Source: a virus. From it: 23,830 nucleotides of DNA. Shown piece by piece: positions 486-7,622 of this stretch (positions are counted from its first letter, which is position 1; each line of letters opens with the position of its first letter). Location: the IMG/VR virus record IMGVR_UViG_3300031840_000185, positions 1 to 23,830 of that record; one strand, given 5' to 3'. The notes below the pieces were generated by a model that saw only the letters and a list, made by a program, of their open reading frames with translations, made no database searches and had not been told where the DNA came from. The translations under genes and the position numbers were made by a program.

Positions 486-986
486 TCAAATATCATTACG
501 AATATTGTAACCTAAACCTGATTGTTCTATTGCTTGTATAGCTTTGTCGCCACAACCTATTAATAAACTTCCAGTACTACCTTGTTTTGCTTGTACTTTG
601 CCTTTATAAAACGCTAATCTACCTTTTACAAAACATAATATATCTGCCTTTGTTGCGTAATCGTGAAACCAACGTGTATCTGTTCTAGCAAATACTAATG
701 CAATACCGTTTCCGTGTTCTATAAGTTTCTCTAACCATAATCCAGTATCTTTGCCATAAGGTGGATTACACCACACAAATCCATACCAATCTTGTTTTAA
801 ACCGTCTAATTCTTTGTGGTAATGATTTTCTGCTGGTACCCACGGTACGCCACCTTTAGGTGCTGCAACATCTAAATCAAATGTTGTATTTAAACTTTTA
901 AATAATTCTGGTGGCGTGTACCACTCATTTGATTGAACTATGCCACCGGGGTTTTCATACCAAGTACCATTTTGTTTTTGATCCAT
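486..986 (-). CDS. Phage DNA N6-adenine methyltransferase (Dam-like)
   Basis: A 166-residue protein of the phage N6-adenine methyltransferase family (PF05869 type). Visible signatures are EWYTPPELF (21-29), the SAM-binding strand FDLDVAA (36-42) and the catalytic motif NPPYG (74-78), followed by the family's ALVFART and GRLAFYKG strands. It would transfer a methyl group from SAM to adenine N6 in the phage DNA, usually to block host restriction. No partner endonuclease is visible, so it is a solitary enzyme. It sits between the WhiB-like gene and the HNH gene in a compact run of late-positioned genes. The length is normal for the family. Its target sequence cannot be read from the protein. Confidence 0.85.
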   Translation of the reverse strand: MDQKQNGTWYENPGGIVQSNEWYTPPELFKSLNTTFDLDVAAPKGGVPWVPAENHYHKELDGLKQDWYGFVWCNPPYGKDTGLWLEKLIEHGNGIALVFARTDTRWFHDYATKADILCFVKGRLAFYKGKVQAKQGSTGSLLIGCGDKAIQAIEQSGLGYNIRNDI

Positions 987-998
987 TTCACAACTTTG

Positions 999-1655
999 TT
1001 ATTTTAATTCTACCCTTTTGTTTTGTTTTTGTTGCCATAACTCTAAATTCTTTCTTGTACACGCTTTACACCAGCTTGTTTTACCACCAATGCCTTGTGG
1101 TCTTTTACTAAACTCTTGTGCAATCTTTCTTTCACCACATTTAGTGCAGCATTTACTTACCAGCTGTCCATAGCTATCAAACTCTGGTCTTGATTTGCTT
1201 GGTTTCTCACGATCTAATAATTTATCTACTTGCTTGTTGTTTTGTATATCTATATGACAACTAACGCATATATGACTTTTTGCACCCCAGTTTTCGTTAT
1301 CACTTGCAAATCCACGTGTCTTTCTATTGCAACGCAAACAACGTTTCTTTTTTAACTTACCGTGGTAATCAAATTCAGCTTCAATAATATCTAATGTTGT
1401 AAATGTTTCTTGCATTGTCTTTAGTAAGTCCTTTGGTGGTTTTGTTTTAAATCTACGTCTAACACGTTCTGGTAAGCAATATAAACCATATTCCAAGTCT
1501 TGATCTAACGCATATTCCAAGCAATCTATGTTAACTGGACATTGTTTACATATTGTGTGGGTTTCCCAATATTGTTTATCGGTACGTTTATCTGTACCGG
1601 GGAAGAATAGATTTATCGGCATACTGTTACATAACGCCCTGTTTTGCCACGTCAT
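999..1655 (-). CDS. WhiB-like regulator fused to two zinc-ribbon modules
   Basis: A 218-residue protein. Residues 1-70 are a WhiB domain: C9 plus the C36-x2-C39-x5-C45 cluster (ICKQCPVNIDC) would hold a [4Fe-4S] cluster, followed by LEYAL and an ERVRRRF basic end. The family's G[VI]WGG turn is changed to GLYCL (57-61), adding a fifth Cys. WhiB proteins are transcription regulators that bind the primary sigma factor in Actinobacteria. Residues about 92-202 hold two similar modules, each starting EFD-x2-G-x-L and carrying two CxxC pairs (C106/C109 with C130/C133; C170/C173 with C196/C199). These look like zinc ribbons that could bind DNA or RNA polymerase. Usual phage WhiB proteins are about 80-110 residues, so the extension is unusual. 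The start ATG lacks a good ribosome site. Tandem operator-like dyads lie upstream. Confidence 0.8.
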   Translation of the reverse strand: MTWQNRALCNSMPINLFFPGTDKRTDKQYWETHTICKQCPVNIDCLEYALDQDLEYGLYCLPERVRRRFKTKPPKDLLKTMQETFTTLDIIEAEFDYHGKLKKKRCLRCNRKTRGFASDNENWGAKSHICVSCHIDIQNNKQVDKLLDREKPSKSRPEFDSYGQLVSKCCTKCGERKIAQEFSKRPQGIGGKTSWCKACTRKNLELWQQKQNKRVELK

Positions 1656-1944: not shown

Positions 1945-2337
1945 TTAATTGTGTGTATCGTTTTTTAATATTTCTTGCGTTTCTTTACTAACTTCAAACT
2001 TTAAACTATCAAGCACTTGATTAGATTGTGATGTAATTTCTTGATACGTTGTACTTAACAACATCAATACACTTTCACGTGGTAAAAAACGTTCTATTGC
2101 TAACCCAAGCTGTTTATAGTTTTGGTATTGAAATATTTGCATATCGTAGGTGTCATTGTCATTTAGTCGTATGCAGTATCTTGATTTAGTATGATCTAAC
2201 CAATTTATTGTGAAGTTCATACCACCTAAATGGCCATTTTTAACGTCTGGTTCTACTGGCTCTTTATCTTGTAGCCAATCGTTTAAACCCATAACATTTG
2301 TTACAAGTTCTTTTACGTCATCATAACCTGCGTTCAT
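1945..2337 (-). CDS. Hypothetical protein
   Basis: About 130 residues, soluble and acidic, with no motif I recognise. I prefer the ATG at 2337 because AAAGG lies 10 nt upstream; the in-frame ATG at 2346 leaves only one base after that site. The middle carries beta-strand-like segments (GGMNFTINWL, RYCIRL, YDMQIFQY). The C-terminal third is helical and polar. It is the first gene after the terminator at 2414-2455 and has a TATAAT box upstream, so it may open a separate transcript leading to the Cys protein and the WhiB-like gene. No function is proposed. Confidence 0.7.
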   Translation of the reverse strand: MNAGYDDVKELVTNVMGLNDWLQDKEPVEPDVKNGHLGGMNFTINWLDHTKSRYCIRLNDNDTYDMQIFQYQNYKQLGLAIERFLPRESVLMLLSTTYQEITSQSNQVLDSLKFEVSKETQEILKNDTHN

Positions 2338-2367
2338 ATCGCACATACCTTTAAGTCTATTGTATGA

Positions 2368-3244: not shown

Positions 3245-3640
3245 CTATCTTAAAATTTTTCCAAATTGTTCTAATAAATAACCTACTCGTTTTGGTATTG
3301 GTTCTTGTAGGTAAAACTCTGTTGTTTCTGGTTGCTTTCTAGTTTCCCAATTAAAGTTATAGCCGTTTATTGTAAGATCAGTTATATTCCACGCAATAAT
3401 TCTTGTTTTATATTCTGTAACGTAAATAAATAGCTTTTTATCTTTAGTTGCTTGTGTGTAGTTTTTATCATACTTGTATTTCTCTATTAGCCACGGATTG
3501 TATTCACGTTGCCTAGATTTTATTTCAATTAGGTAATTATCGTTGTAGCAATCATAATGTTCGTAAATGTTTGTTGTTTCTGTAAGCTGTCCAAATACAT
3601 CTAGTTGATTTAATTTATTAATTATTTCTCGTTGCTTCAT
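3245..3640 (-). CDS. Putative PD-(D/E)XK-type nuclease
   Basis: A 131-residue protein. The pattern D30...D34...LIEIKSR (37-43, E39-x-K41), followed by a Lys-rich helix around KYKYDKN (55-61), matches the core of the PD-(D/E)XK nuclease fold (acid, then E-x-K, then a Lys/Gln helix). The segment FIYVTEYKTRIIAWNI then gives the expected extra strands. If real, it would be a small Mg-dependent endonuclease or a resolvase or repair enzyme. Its start overlaps the glycosyltransferase stop by 23 nt, so the two are co-translated. It may attack unmodified DNA, but this is inference. The assignment rests on a short motif only. Confidence 0.5.
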   Translation of the reverse strand: MKQREIINKLNQLDVFGQLTETTNIYEHYDCYNDNYLIEIKSRQREYNPWLIEKYKYDKNYTQATKDKKLFIYVTEYKTRIIAWNITDLTINGYNFNWETRKQPETTEFYLQEPIPKRVGYLLEQFGKILR

Positions 3641-4466
3641 TTTTAATCAATGCTAACCCATAGTCATTATTTTCGTTTTTTAAATGTATGCCTTTTTTAA
3701 ATATTAAGTCATTGTCTGCAAATGGCTTATAATTTACTTGATGATGAAACCTGTTAAATTTTTTTGTTAATTTTACTACGTCTGGGTGTTGATCTACTAA
3801 ACTTTGTGCAAATTCTAACCTATTGTCTGTTTCGCTATATATATCAGCATTACCACCTTTTTGTGTTGATGTTGCACGTTTACCAATTAAAAAAGTTCTA
3901 AACAAAACAGTTACCCAACCGTCTTTTAAAATTCTTAATGATAAATCTGTATCTTCGTTGTACTTGCCACGCCACCTATGTTTAATTTTATTATTTTGTA
4001 AAATACACGAATAAACACGTGTATTAAAGTGTAATGGTGGTCTTGCTTCACTTGCTGGACAAAAAATACCATAGTGCATACCAGCTTGACCAATGTTTTC
4101 ATACCTATCTACAAAATGTTCAATAATTCTAAATGGTGTTGATGTTTTACACTTTATCTTTAAATTGTTATAAAAACGTTCAACGCTTTCAATGTTGTCG
4201 TCTAAAATCCAATGCCAATCAAAGCCATTATCAATACTATGTTGCCAAACAAAATTTCTTACTGGAACAGAACCTTGACCACGTTCACTAAAGTTTTCTG
4301 GTGCTTTAATTATATTTTTTTCATCAATGACATTTGCATAATCATTGTATTCTTTTGGCTCAACCACTATTTTGTAAGGTGTGTTTGTAAATTCCATAGT
4401 TTTTACTGTTTGTCGTCTTTCCCAACGACCTTTAGATATAATATAAATTGGATATTTAGGTTTCAT
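3618..4466 (-). CDS. TET-associated-type DNA glycosyltransferase (TAGT family)
   Basis: A 282-residue GT-A fold glycosyltransferase. I recognise the phage TAGT pattern: YPIYIISKGRW (5-15), IVVEPKEY (33-40), GQGSVPVRNFVW (63-74), the metal/sugar-nucleotide motif WILDDNI (86-92), and the EDTDLSLRIL block (171-180). Known members glycosylate 5-hydroxymethylcytosine, made from 5-methylcytosine by phage TET/JBP dioxygenases, giving hypermodified DNA that resists host nucleases. No dioxygenase or C5 methyltransferase is in this window, so either they lie elsewhere in the genome or the acceptor is another hydroxylated base. The gene overlaps the 84-residue gene upstream by 11 nt and the nuclease-like gene downstream by 23 nt, forming a tight cassette. 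Confidence 0.75.
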   Translation of the reverse strand: MKPKYPIYIISKGRWERRQTVKTMEFTNTPYKIVVEPKEYNDYANVIDEKNIIKAPENFSERGQGSVPVRNFVWQHSIDNGFDWHWILDDNIESVERFYNNLKIKCKTSTPFRIIEHFVDRYENIGQAGMHYGIFCPASEARPPLHFNTRVYSCILQNNKIKHRWRGKYNEDTDLSLRILKDGWVTVLFRTFLIGKRATSTQKGGNADIYSETDNRLEFAQSLVDQHPDVVKLTKKFNRFHHQVNYKPFADNDLIFKKGIHLKNENNDYGLALIKNEATRNN

Positions 4467-4710: not shown

Positions 4711-5179
4711 TTTGCCATTTCGCAATCCATTTGTCCGTATCTTCCCAACACCATTGGCTACTACTCCACGGTTTCCAATAATTATCCCTTGTGTGCATAT
4801 CTTGTACAAGTAATGCAGCTACTTGAATATTATAACGTGGAATAAACTGTGCATAGGTATTTCCAACTGGGTAATCCCAGTAAGGTATATCGTGTTTTTC
4901 TTTTACCCAACCCCACGTTCTTGGTATTGCTTGAAATAAGCCACTATCTTGATCTTGGTAGCGATATGCGTCTGCTTTATTGCGACTTTCACACCACATT
5001 ACTTTTACAGCTGTTTCTATGTTTTTTTCATCAAAATGTTCTACAAGTAATGTTGCATATTGATAACAAGTTTCTGGTACATAATTATCGCAATCAGTTA
5101 AATTTATAACTTCATCTGCAACGCCATAACCAAAATTATTTACAAGTAAAGCGTAAATTAATATGCACTTAGTTATCAA
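4703..5179 (-). CDS. Secreted lysozyme/transglycosylase-like protein (TTG start)
   Basis: A 158-residue protein starting at TTG (5179), which overlaps the upstream TGA. Residues 1-21 form a Sec signal peptide (K4, hydrophobic 6-20, cleavage near GVA-DE). The mature part has the lysozyme-like/SLT signature: MWCESR (61-66) with the likely catalytic E64, then SGLFQAIPRTW (79-89). The C-terminus is Trp-rich (KPWSSSQWCW). Four Cys (30, 38, 63, 144) could make disulfides, fitting an exported protein. It should cleave the glycan strand of peptidoglycan. It lies in the replication operon, far from the amidase/holin lysis pair, so it may act early on the wall or release host wall material, or it may be a virion protein. 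The role is uncertain. Confidence 0.75.
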   Translation of the reverse strand: MITKCILIYALLVNNFGYGVADEVINLTDCDNYVPETCYQYATLLVEHFDEKNIETAVKVMWCESRNKADAYRYQDQDSGLFQAIPRTWGWVKEKHDIPYWDYPVGNTYAQFIPRYNIQVAALLVQDMHTRDNYWKPWSSSQWCWEDTDKWIAKWQNE

Positions 5180-5868
5180 AATAAACCTATTTGTGTGTTA
5201 TTAATGCGTTCTGTTGCATAATCATAATATTCTTTTACAAGTTCTATGCCTATAAAATTACGATTTAACTTAACACAACTTACACCTGTTGTACCCATAC
5301 CCATAAACGGATCTAGTATAATTTCATTTTCTTGTGTAAAATTTTCTATTATATAATTTGATAATTCTTGTGGCATTACAGCACTATGATTTTTTAACTT
5401 TTCATTTTTACTAATTTTATTTATTGATACTAAATTTTTAATAAAATGTTTATTTGCTTCTACGTAAATATTATTTGTAAAAAATAAAATGTATTCAACA
5501 AAATTAGAAACTCTATGTTGTATTGAACTTGGTGTACCGTCTGGTTTATACCATATAATATTTTGTTGTAATTTATCTGCAAAATGTCCCATTATTCTAT
5601 AAACTTCTTTTTTATTTGAATAATTAGGTTGTATATTCCAAATTACATACTTTTTAGATACTCTTAATAATTCATCTATTATTTCAACACACCAATCAAA
5701 ATAATTTGGATTGTTATCTTCAAAAAATTCATATTTTGCTTTCATATCACTTTTTGTTTTATTGTTAGATCTGCCAATGTTGTACGGTGGACTTGTAAAT
5801 ACATAATCTACGCTGTTGTCATCAAATTCTTTTAAAGCTTGTAAGCAATCTGCATTAATCAGTTTCAT
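5176..5868 (-). CDS. Beta-class DNA methyltransferase (N4-cytosine or N6-adenine)
   Basis: A 230-residue SAM-dependent DNA methyltransferase with motifs in the beta-class order: catalytic motif IV TSPPYNIG (25-32) first, then HSAVMPQEL (161-169), motif I DPFMGMGTTG (186-195) and FIGIEL (205-210). SPPY is most typical of N4-cytosine enzymes, but N6-adenine enzymes with this variant exist. The target-recognition part is short (about 35-150). No restriction enzyme is adjacent, so it is probably a solitary protective or regulatory methylase. It overlaps the initiator gene upstream by 14 nt and the secreted lysozyme-like gene downstream by 4 nt. Its start ATG lies inside the end of the initiator gene. 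Confidence 0.85.
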   Translation of the reverse strand: MKLINADCLQALKEFDDNSVDYVFTSPPYNIGRSNNKTKSDMKAKYEFFEDNNPNYFDWCVEIIDELLRVSKKYVIWNIQPNYSNKKEVYRIMGHFADKLQQNIIWYKPDGTPSSIQHRVSNFVEYILFFTNNIYVEANKHFIKNLVSINKISKNEKLKNHSAVMPQELSNYIIENFTQENEIILDPFMGMGTTGVSCVKLNRNFIGIELVKEYYDYATERINNTQIGLF

Positions 5869-7055: not shown

Positions 7056-7164
7056 TTTCTTTTAACTCCATTTCTAATAAAGCAACCATTTTCTTCACTT
7101 CTTTCAACTCTTGGTCTGTTGTGATGTGTCGTAACAGTTGCTTTATGTTCTCTAATACTGTCAT
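7042..7164 (-). CDS. Small helical protein
   Basis: A 40-residue ORF that fills the gap between two genes: its ATG overlaps the upstream TAA (TAATG) and its end overlaps the next ATG by 14 nt, the layout of translational coupling. The sequence is one amphipathic helix with heptad-like Leu/Val spacing (LENIKQLL, ELKEVKKMVALLEMEL). It may be a small coiled-coil subunit. No family is recognised. Confidence 0.6.
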   Translation of the reverse strand: MTVLENIKQLLRHITTDQELKEVKKMVALLEMELKENAKR

Positions 7165-7622
7165 TAAAACGGTGGTTTTAAATCCTCTAAATCAACGACT
7201 TCTGTTGGTGTTTGTTCTGCATTAAACTTTTTTTCTGCATTATCAAACTCGTCATCATTCCAACTAGCCCACGGAAAACCTTTACCAGTATCGCAACCGT
7301 CTTTATTTGCACACTTCCACAATGGTTGTTTACCTTGTGCAGTTTCACGATTGTCCCAAACTTTTGAACCACAACTTGGACATTTAGGTTCAAACTTAGG
7401 TTTATCACCAACTGTTACTTCCTGTGTATCGTTTGTATATTTATAGGTTACTTTTTGTTCTTCTATGTAACCGTCTTTTAAATAATTAAAAAGATTGTTT
7501 GATATGTTTCTAATAACTTCTAGTTGGTTAGCTATATCGTTATTAGGATCAAACTTATCTTTTGTAAGTTCTGTTGCTGCTTTTAAAGCAACTTGTTTCA
7601 TTATTATTTCACTTTGTGTCAT
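7164..7622 (-). CDS. Zinc-ribbon protein with SSB-like C-terminal tip
   Basis: A 152-residue protein with a strong ribosome site (AAGGAG). The N-terminal 50 residues are helical (MKQVALKAATELT). A zinc ribbon follows: CPSC (81-84), then C104 and C110. The C-terminus is acidic and ends DLEDLKPPF, closely like the acidic tip of single-strand binding proteins (actinobacterial SSB ends in PPF), the site that recruits replication and repair proteins. No OB fold can be seen. It may therefore be an ssDNA-binding or replisome-recruiting factor, and it sits at the head of the replication genes. The functional reading is inference; the zinc ribbon and the C-terminal residues are directly visible. Confidence 0.7.
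   Translation of the reverse strand: MTQSEIIMKQVALKAATELTKDKFDPNNDIANQLEVIRNISNNLFNYLKDGYIEEQKVTYKYTNDTQEVTVGDKPKFEPKCPSCGSKVWDNRETAQGKQPLWKCANKDGCDTGKGFPWASWNDDEFDNAEKKFNAEQTPTEVVDLEDLKPPF

What the first reader, a model, noticed from the sequence alone, without database searches (positions are those of the whole stretch)
999..1655. WhiB domain fused to a duplicated zinc-ribbon module
Known phage WhiB proteins are short. Here the [4Fe-4S] domain is followed by two modules that share EFD-x2-G-x-L and two CxxC pairs each. The G[VI]WGG turn is changed to GLYCL, adding a Cys. It could bind sigma factor through WhiB and DNA or polymerase through the ribbons, making a redox-sensitive host-takeover factor.
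Basis: partly seen in the sequence, partly recalled or inferred. Interest (0 to 1): 0.7.

Follow-up and report, generated by a model that had tools for sequence, protein, structure and literature searches.

The report
Phage WhiB fused to twin zinc-finger modules
A marine phage of the abundant ocean bacterium Candidatus Actinomarina carries a bacterial-type iron-sulfur transcription regulator (WhiB) fused to two related zinc-finger modules of a type otherwise seen in phage nucleases; it is probably a regulator that brings its own DNA-gripping part, and it corrects a published note that the fused part is a toxin.

Summary
ORF 999-1655(-), 218 aa, has a PF02467 WhiB domain (E 1.2e-12) followed by two related modules, each with EFD-x2-G-x-L and two CxxC pairs (profile-profile P 5.7e-10; shuffled controls 0.0076 or worse). 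In 17 diverse relatives exactly 12 cysteines are invariant: four WhiB ligands plus 4+4. The window is a fragment of a tailed phage of Ca. Actinomarina; a 71%-identical gene lies on a phage contig of single cell AG-919-G14. Published work noticed that gene's double size but called the added part ADP-ribosyltransferase-like; we find no such domain. Module 2 is the treble-clef-like ribbon that precedes Endo VII/HNH domains in other phage proteins, here without a nuclease. The gene is core to the clade: just upstream of HNH, a probable cos site and terminase. Among 134 sampled viral WhiB frames only this clade has two modules; eight others carry a shorter tail with two CxxC. Best reading: a sigma-A-docking regulator with a built-in, probably DNA-binding, part. 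Sigma contact residues are conserved; DNA binding and targets are inferred. New variant of a known kind.

The parts
999..1655 (-). WhiB-ribbon-ribbon gene, 218 aa plus stop
   Evidence: open frame; intact in all full-length relatives
1458..1649 (-). WhiB (Wbl) domain, four Cys C9/C36/C39/C45, W3/F17/F18
   Evidence: PF02467 E 2.7e-15, 1.2e-12; S. venezuelae WhiB 8dy7 E 1.1e-8
1473..1487 (-). altered turn GLYCL (residues 57-61) in place of G[VI]WGG; Cys60 not conserved
   Evidence: position 60 is C/A/G/S, position 59 is Y/F, followed by invariant P62-E63-R64-V65-R66
1245..1385 (-). module 1 (residues 91-137): Cys4 module with C106, C109, C130, C133 invariant
1032..1193 (-). module 2 (residues 155-208): nuclease-type Cys4 ribbon with C170, C173, C196, C199 invariant
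   Evidence: PHROG 1035 (endonuclease VII) E 1.1e-7 on the module alone; model pLDDT about 80 with hairpin then helix; same ribbon N-terminal to Endo VII in Manuel gp3 and A3Wally gp146 and to HNH in L018
100..447 (-). HNH endonuclease, conserved downstream neighbour
   Evidence: PF01844 E 2.9e-14; synteny
486..986 (-). Dam-like DNA adenine methyltransferase, variable cargo between whiB and HNH
   Evidence: PF05869 E 5.6e-15; present in only some relatives at this spot
1945..2346 (-). conserved upstream neighbour, 133 aa, no known family
   Evidence: not detected in L036, L047-L049
1..99 (-). end of the genome, probable right cos end downstream of HNH
   Evidence: window and six other contigs stop at the same aligned base; left ends of relatives begin about 14 nt further on

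Best explanation
A phage-encoded Wbl transcription factor that carries its own nucleic-acid-binding part. The N-terminal WhiB domain binds a [4Fe-4S] cluster and docks on region 4 of the host primary sigma factor, as WhiB1, WhiB3 and WhiB7 do. The two C-terminal Cys4, treble-clef-like modules, of the kind that precede phage Endo VII/HNH nuclease domains, bind one Zn each and grip DNA next to the -35 region, playing the part that the AT-hook plays in WhiB7 or the partner WhiA plays for WhiB. It is probably made with the early genes and steers host RNA polymerase to phage promoters, most likely those of the terminase/structural module that lies just across the genome end. Shown: domain content, duplication, 12 invariant Cys, conserved sigma-contact residues, lineage-wide conservation, gene order. 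Inferred: metal content, sigma docking, DNA binding by the modules, late-gene target.
For: WhiB domain over the Pfam cut-off; best solved relatives are WhiB of the S. venezuelae entries 8dy7/8dy9 and Mtb WhiB1. WhiB1-sigma contacts are W3, F17, F18, V59, W60 (PMC7363131): here W3 and F17 are invariant in 17 of 17, F18 in 14 of 17, position 59 always Y/F, and the host sigma A ends in CRLRHPS.... Exactly 12 invariant Cys. Duplication P 5.7e-10. Both modules are conserved at least as strongly as WhiB (mean pairwise identity 0.72 and 0.76 against 0.63). Both modules are modelled with a similar strand plan, module 2 with a helix starting at the second CxxC. Ribbon type shared with DNA-acting phage enzymes. 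Host WhiBs in 42 Actinomarina genomes lie in open frames of at most 141 aa. Constant placement upstream of HNH, probable cos and TerS/TerL. Wbl proteins need a partner or tail for site choice (PMC6282962; PMC10245118).
Against: No experiment. The canonical G[VI]WGG turn is absent. AlphaFold models are weak (pLDDT 47 full length, 62 C-terminal part) and fold matches are weak (best VIA Z 3.9, Hpy99I Z 3.5; best BFVD E 3.6e-3). Cys4-Zn elements at HNH sites act to hold the fold, unlike zinc fingers that read sequence (PMC4081073). No shared operator was found upstream of the gene: the CTAAG-N5-CTTAG pair at 1714-1753 is not in relatives.
Confidence: 0.5

Rival explanations
1. Dominant-negative host regulator, like WhiB of mycobacteriophage TM4: it competes with host WhiB-type proteins for sigma A or for host promoters, shutting down host genes and blocking superinfection; the modules raise affinity for host DNA.
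For: TM4 WhiB inhibits whiB2 expression and blocks secondary infection (PMC8612146; PMC3861242). The TM4 turn (L55, V56, V58) is also non-canonical (PMC3390391). Most Actinomarina genomes carry 2-3 ordinary WhiBs to compete with.
Against: TM4 WhiB is not known to carry such a tail (from general knowledge); the tail here is conserved at least as strongly as WhiB and the gene is tied to the HNH/terminase end of the phage genome.
Confidence: 0.2
2. A packaging or DNA-processing accessory: the nuclease-type modules bind near the genome end and work with the adjacent HNH protein and terminase, with WhiB tying this to transcription or to redox state.
For: Always upstream of HNH, and in L030, L032, L036 and L047-L049 directly abutting or overlapping the HNH frame; HNH, probable cos, TerS and TerL follow. 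Module 2 is the ribbon of Endo VII/HNH proteins.
Against: WhiB domains are known as transcription factors; other genes often sit between it and HNH. No nuclease family matches the modules as a whole.
Confidence: 0.15
3. WhiB fused to an ADP-ribosyltransferase-type toxin domain, as published for the AG-919-G14 homologue (PMC7771536).
For: Published statement about the homologous gene.
Against: No ADP-ribosyltransferase family in Pfam, PHROG or NCBIfam scans of the protein; PF03496 has no match in the window record or the AG-919-G14 genome at E 10; the C-terminal half is two Cys4 modules joined by short linkers.
Confidence: 0.03
4. The modules are a structural or protein-protein interaction tail (for example to RNA polymerase or a phage protein) with no nucleic-acid binding.
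For: Treble-clef modules often mediate protein contacts (general knowledge); weak fold matches include protein-binding zinc domains.
Against: The sequence-level relatives are DNA-acting enzymes. The modules hold invariant basic positions (K104, R105, R108, R111, K168, K172, R176, R185, K197).
Confidence: 0.12

Closest known systems
WhiB7/WblC with AT-hook
   Same: Wbl domain followed by a covalently attached DNA-binding part; sigma A docking (PMC6282962, PMC10245118)
   Different: AT-hook of a few residues there; two Cys4 modules of about 50 aa each here; G[VI]WGG turn missing
WhiB of mycobacteriophage TM4 and other phage WhiBs (PHROG 472, 1333, 10071, 14459)
   Same: phage-encoded Wbl domain; altered turn in TM4
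   Different: those PHROGs score only the WhiB part; the tail here adds no score
Ribbon preceding phage Endo VII / HNH nucleases (PHROG 1035, 2633, 2340; Streptomyces phage Manuel gp3, Microbacterium phage A3Wally gp146, L018)
   Same: C-x2-C-GE-x-K ... F ... G ... C-x2-C pattern, aligned to module 2 with E 1.1e-7
   Different: no nuclease domain follows here, and the module is doubled
Viral WhiBs with one C-terminal zinc-like module (L151, L160, L209, L230, L243, L246, L259; L260 with two C2H2-like fingers)
   Same: WhiB plus a tail with two CxxC
   Different: short tails of about 35-66 aa with other Cys patterns, not the tandem nuclease-type modules
AG-919-G14 phage WhiB (Ca. Actinomarina, PMC7771536)
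   Same: same gene, 71% identical
   Different: published reading (ADP-ribosyltransferase-related fusion) is not supported here

Membership tests
WhiB-like (Wbl), PF02467 | profile score over the curated cut-off | tested here: met
   48.6 bits against 23.6
WhiB-like (Wbl), PF02467 | four Cys, CxnCx2Cx5C | tested here: met
   C9, C36, C39, C45 invariant in 17 of 17
WhiB-like (Wbl), PF02467 | G[VI]WGG turn (typical, not universal: about half of the sampled viral WhiBs with a recognisable turn keep it exactly) | tested here: not met
   G[LV][YF][CAGS][LVM]PE in this clade; viral sample. The domain is called WhiB-type on the profile and the Cys ligands.
WhiB-like (Wbl), PF02467 | aromatic residues that contact sigma A region 4 | tested here: met
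   W3, F17 invariant; F18 in 14 of 17; Y/F at the Trp position
WhiB-like (Wbl), PF02467 | [4Fe-4S] cluster and sigma A binding | not testable with these tools
   needs purified protein
Endo VII/HNH-associated ribbon | sequence match of module 2 to the ribbon part of nuclease PHROGs | tested here: met
   PHROG 1035 E 1.1e-7, 2633 E 2.8e-6
Endo VII/HNH-associated ribbon | nuclease domain present in the same protein | tested here: not met
   no HNH/Endo VII Pfam match; the protein ends soon after module 2. It has the ribbon but is not filed as a nuclease.
Treble-clef fold | zinc knuckle, hairpin, helix carrying the second CxxC | tested here: inconclusive
   secondary structure fits; fold matches weak
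ADP-ribosyltransferase toxin (PF03496) | profile match | tested here: not met
   no match at E 10; no match
WhiB7 class (AT-hook) | RGRP AT-hook after the turn | tested here: not met
   no RGR in the protein sequence

The most novel reading that the evidence does not exclude
A two-part phage specificity factor: a Wbl domain that seizes the host primary sigma factor, with tandem modules borrowed from nuclease ribbons that read phage promoter DNA, giving a Wbl protein that needs no partner for site choice and redirects the polymerase of a widespread ocean bacterium.
Probability: 0.35. Interest if true: 0.62.

Novelty: new variant of a known kind. Interest (0 to 1): 0.45.

Why it matters
Wbl proteins mostly lack a recognisable DNA-binding part, and how they choose promoters is an open question; WhiB7's AT-hook is described as the only recognised exception (PMC6282962). 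A natural Wbl with a large covalent zinc-type tail makes that question testable in one polypeptide. It is a core gene of phages infecting Ca. Actinomarina, a small and widespread marine actinobacterium known from uncultured genomes, and the evidence replaces a published toxin reading with a regulator reading. Viral WhiBs with one zinc-like tail in other contigs suggest that phages repeatedly attach such modules to WhiB.

Tried and rejected
Extra Cys of GLYCL as a fifth ligand: rejected, C/A/G/S among relatives. Cys169: not conserved. ADP-ribosyltransferase fusion: no match. Tail as a known extension of phage WhiB: rejected, PHROG WhiB scores do not rise with the tail. Weak Pfam matches of the modules (BIR, Stc1, Sir2) are all under their cut-offs and were read only as 'Cys4 zinc-like'. 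Palindromes CTAAG-N5-CTTAG upstream of the gene: two copies, 14 of 100 shuffles give as many (one mismatch allowed), absent in relatives. First full-length AlphaFold run too shallow; Foldseek PDB matches not significant, including hits to Rhs/Tc shells (TM 0.17), which were ignored. PDB profile search with the C-terminal half: nothing up to E 10. NCBIfam: nothing meaningful. PADLOC: no match for this protein. Plasmid collection: only the WhiB part matches.

Full report
Observation. The ORF at 999-1655 on the minus strand is open and 218 aa long. Residues 3-64 match Pfam WhiB (PF02467) at E 1.2e-12, about twice the curated cut-off in bits. The nearest solved structures are WhiB in the S. venezuelae entries 8dy7/8dy9 and Mtb WhiB1. 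After residue 90 come two modules with EFD-x2-G-x-L followed by C-x2-C ... C-x2-C. BLASTP of the two modules gives E 2e-6, and hhalign of the family profiles gives P 5.7e-10 against 0.0076 at best in ten column-shuffled controls. Whether the pair arose by internal duplication or by two acquisitions of one module type is not settled: module 2 is 43% identical to the ribbon of the HNH protein in L018, module 1 about 30% identical to module 2.

Family. The whole three-part protein was found in IMG/VR contigs and in one bacterial genome record, contig 11 of the Ca. Actinomarina single cell AG-919-G14. No intact relative is in GenBank phages or plasmids; there only the WhiB part matches. Seventeen diverse members align; 12 Cys are invariant and every other Cys column varies. 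The Cys in GLYCL is Ala, Gly or Ser in six of the seventeen. WhiB is the more variable part (mean pairwise identity 0.63), module 1 0.72, module 2 0.76.

Host and genome. The AG-919-G14 contig is a phage genome syntenic with the window, so the host of this phage type is Ca. Actinomarina. In 42 Actinomarina genomes every other WhiB lies in an open frame of at most 141 aa; only the phage contig has the fusion. Host WhiBs that were read have GIWGG or GVWGG. Gene order in about 24 contigs is p164 - HTH_36 protein - SLT lysozyme - (variable genes, often p131 and p133) - WhiB/ribbons - (variable cargo, such as the Dam-like methyltransferase) - HNH - usually about 250 nt - TerS - TerL - portal. In L030, L032, L036 and L047-L049 the HNH frame abuts or overlaps the WhiB gene. 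All nine TerL-related records that hold any WhiB hold it in a frame of 216-229 aa; the other sixteen records searched are shorter or incomplete and hold no WhiB, which proves nothing.

Genome end. The window and six other contigs end at the same aligned base...CAC, about 100 nt downstream of HNH. Other contigs begin about 14 nt further on, and contigs that run through contain the missing 14 nt. This fits a cos site with a 14-nt 3' overhang lost in library preparation (inference). So window position 1 is very probably a natural genome end.

The modules. Alone, module 2 matches PHROG 1035 and 2633 (endonuclease VII) at E 1.1e-7 and 2.8e-6 and PHROG 2340/2255 nucleases more weakly; module 1 alone matches nothing meaningful. 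In Streptomyces phage Manuel gp3 and Microbacterium phage A3Wally gp146 the same ribbon sits directly before an Endo VII-type domain, and in L018 it sits far N-terminal to an HNH domain. Here no nuclease domain follows. AlphaFold models are weak overall (pLDDT 47 and 62), but module 2 reaches about 80, with a hairpin around the first CxxC and a long helix starting at the second CxxC, the treble-clef plan. Fold matches are consistent but weak: Hpy99I beta-beta-alpha-Me endonuclease Z 3.5; HNH, treble-clef and Stc1-domain viral proteins.

How unusual. They hold 134 WhiB frames with median tail 17.5 aa. Six have four CxxC in the tail and all are this family, including two distant members (L148, L205). 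Eight more have two CxxC in a shorter tail and ten have one. Attaching a zinc-like module to WhiB therefore recurs in viruses; the tandem nuclease-type version was found only in this clade.

Published reading. [quoted passage not shown] We find no such family in the protein, and PF03496 has no match in the window or in that genome.

Mechanism. WhiB1 contacts sigma A region 4 through W3, F17, F18 and V59/W60 (PMC7363131). W3 and F17 are invariant here, F18 nearly so, and Y/F replaces W60; the host sigma A keeps RHP in region 4. WhiB7 is described as the only Wbl with a recognised DNA-binding motif, an AT-hook (PMC6282962). The simplest reading is that the twin modules are this phage's answer to the same need. 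The position before HNH, genome end and terminase makes the structural (late) genes a natural target, which is inference. Rivals are a TM4-like host-regulator competitor, a packaging accessory, and a protein-interaction tail.

Limits.

Noticed in passing
1-99: Window position 1 is probably a physical genome end (cos): seven contigs end at the same aligned base, relatives start about 14 nt further on, and run-through contigs contain the missing 14 nt, as expected for a 3' overhang lost in sequencing.
   Followed up: partly
3618-4466: TET-associated glycosyltransferase (PF20691, E 2.5e-41) beside an N4/N6 methyltransferase (5176-5868) and a Dam-like methyltransferase (486-986): possible DNA base hypermodification; a TET/JBP partner was not searched for.
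   Followed up: no
L151, L160, L209, L230, L243, L246, L259, L260: Other viral WhiB frames carry a single C-terminal zinc-like module (two CxxC, or C2H2-like fingers in L260), a recurring architecture.
   Followed up: partly
1714-1753: Two copies of CTAAG-N5-CTTAG 25 nt apart upstream of the WhiB gene, not present in relatives.
   Followed up: yes
7164-7622: Small protein with a further zinc-like Cys stretch (CPSCGSKVWDN...WKCANKDGC); no Pfam match.
   Followed up: no
L145, L159, L189, L194: Viral WhiB frames whose C-terminal tails of about 193 aa lack CxxC and share a conserved end (WPDPLPEHIASAIFMGCSYVMNLGK); could be a fusion or an overlapping reading frame.
   Followed up: no
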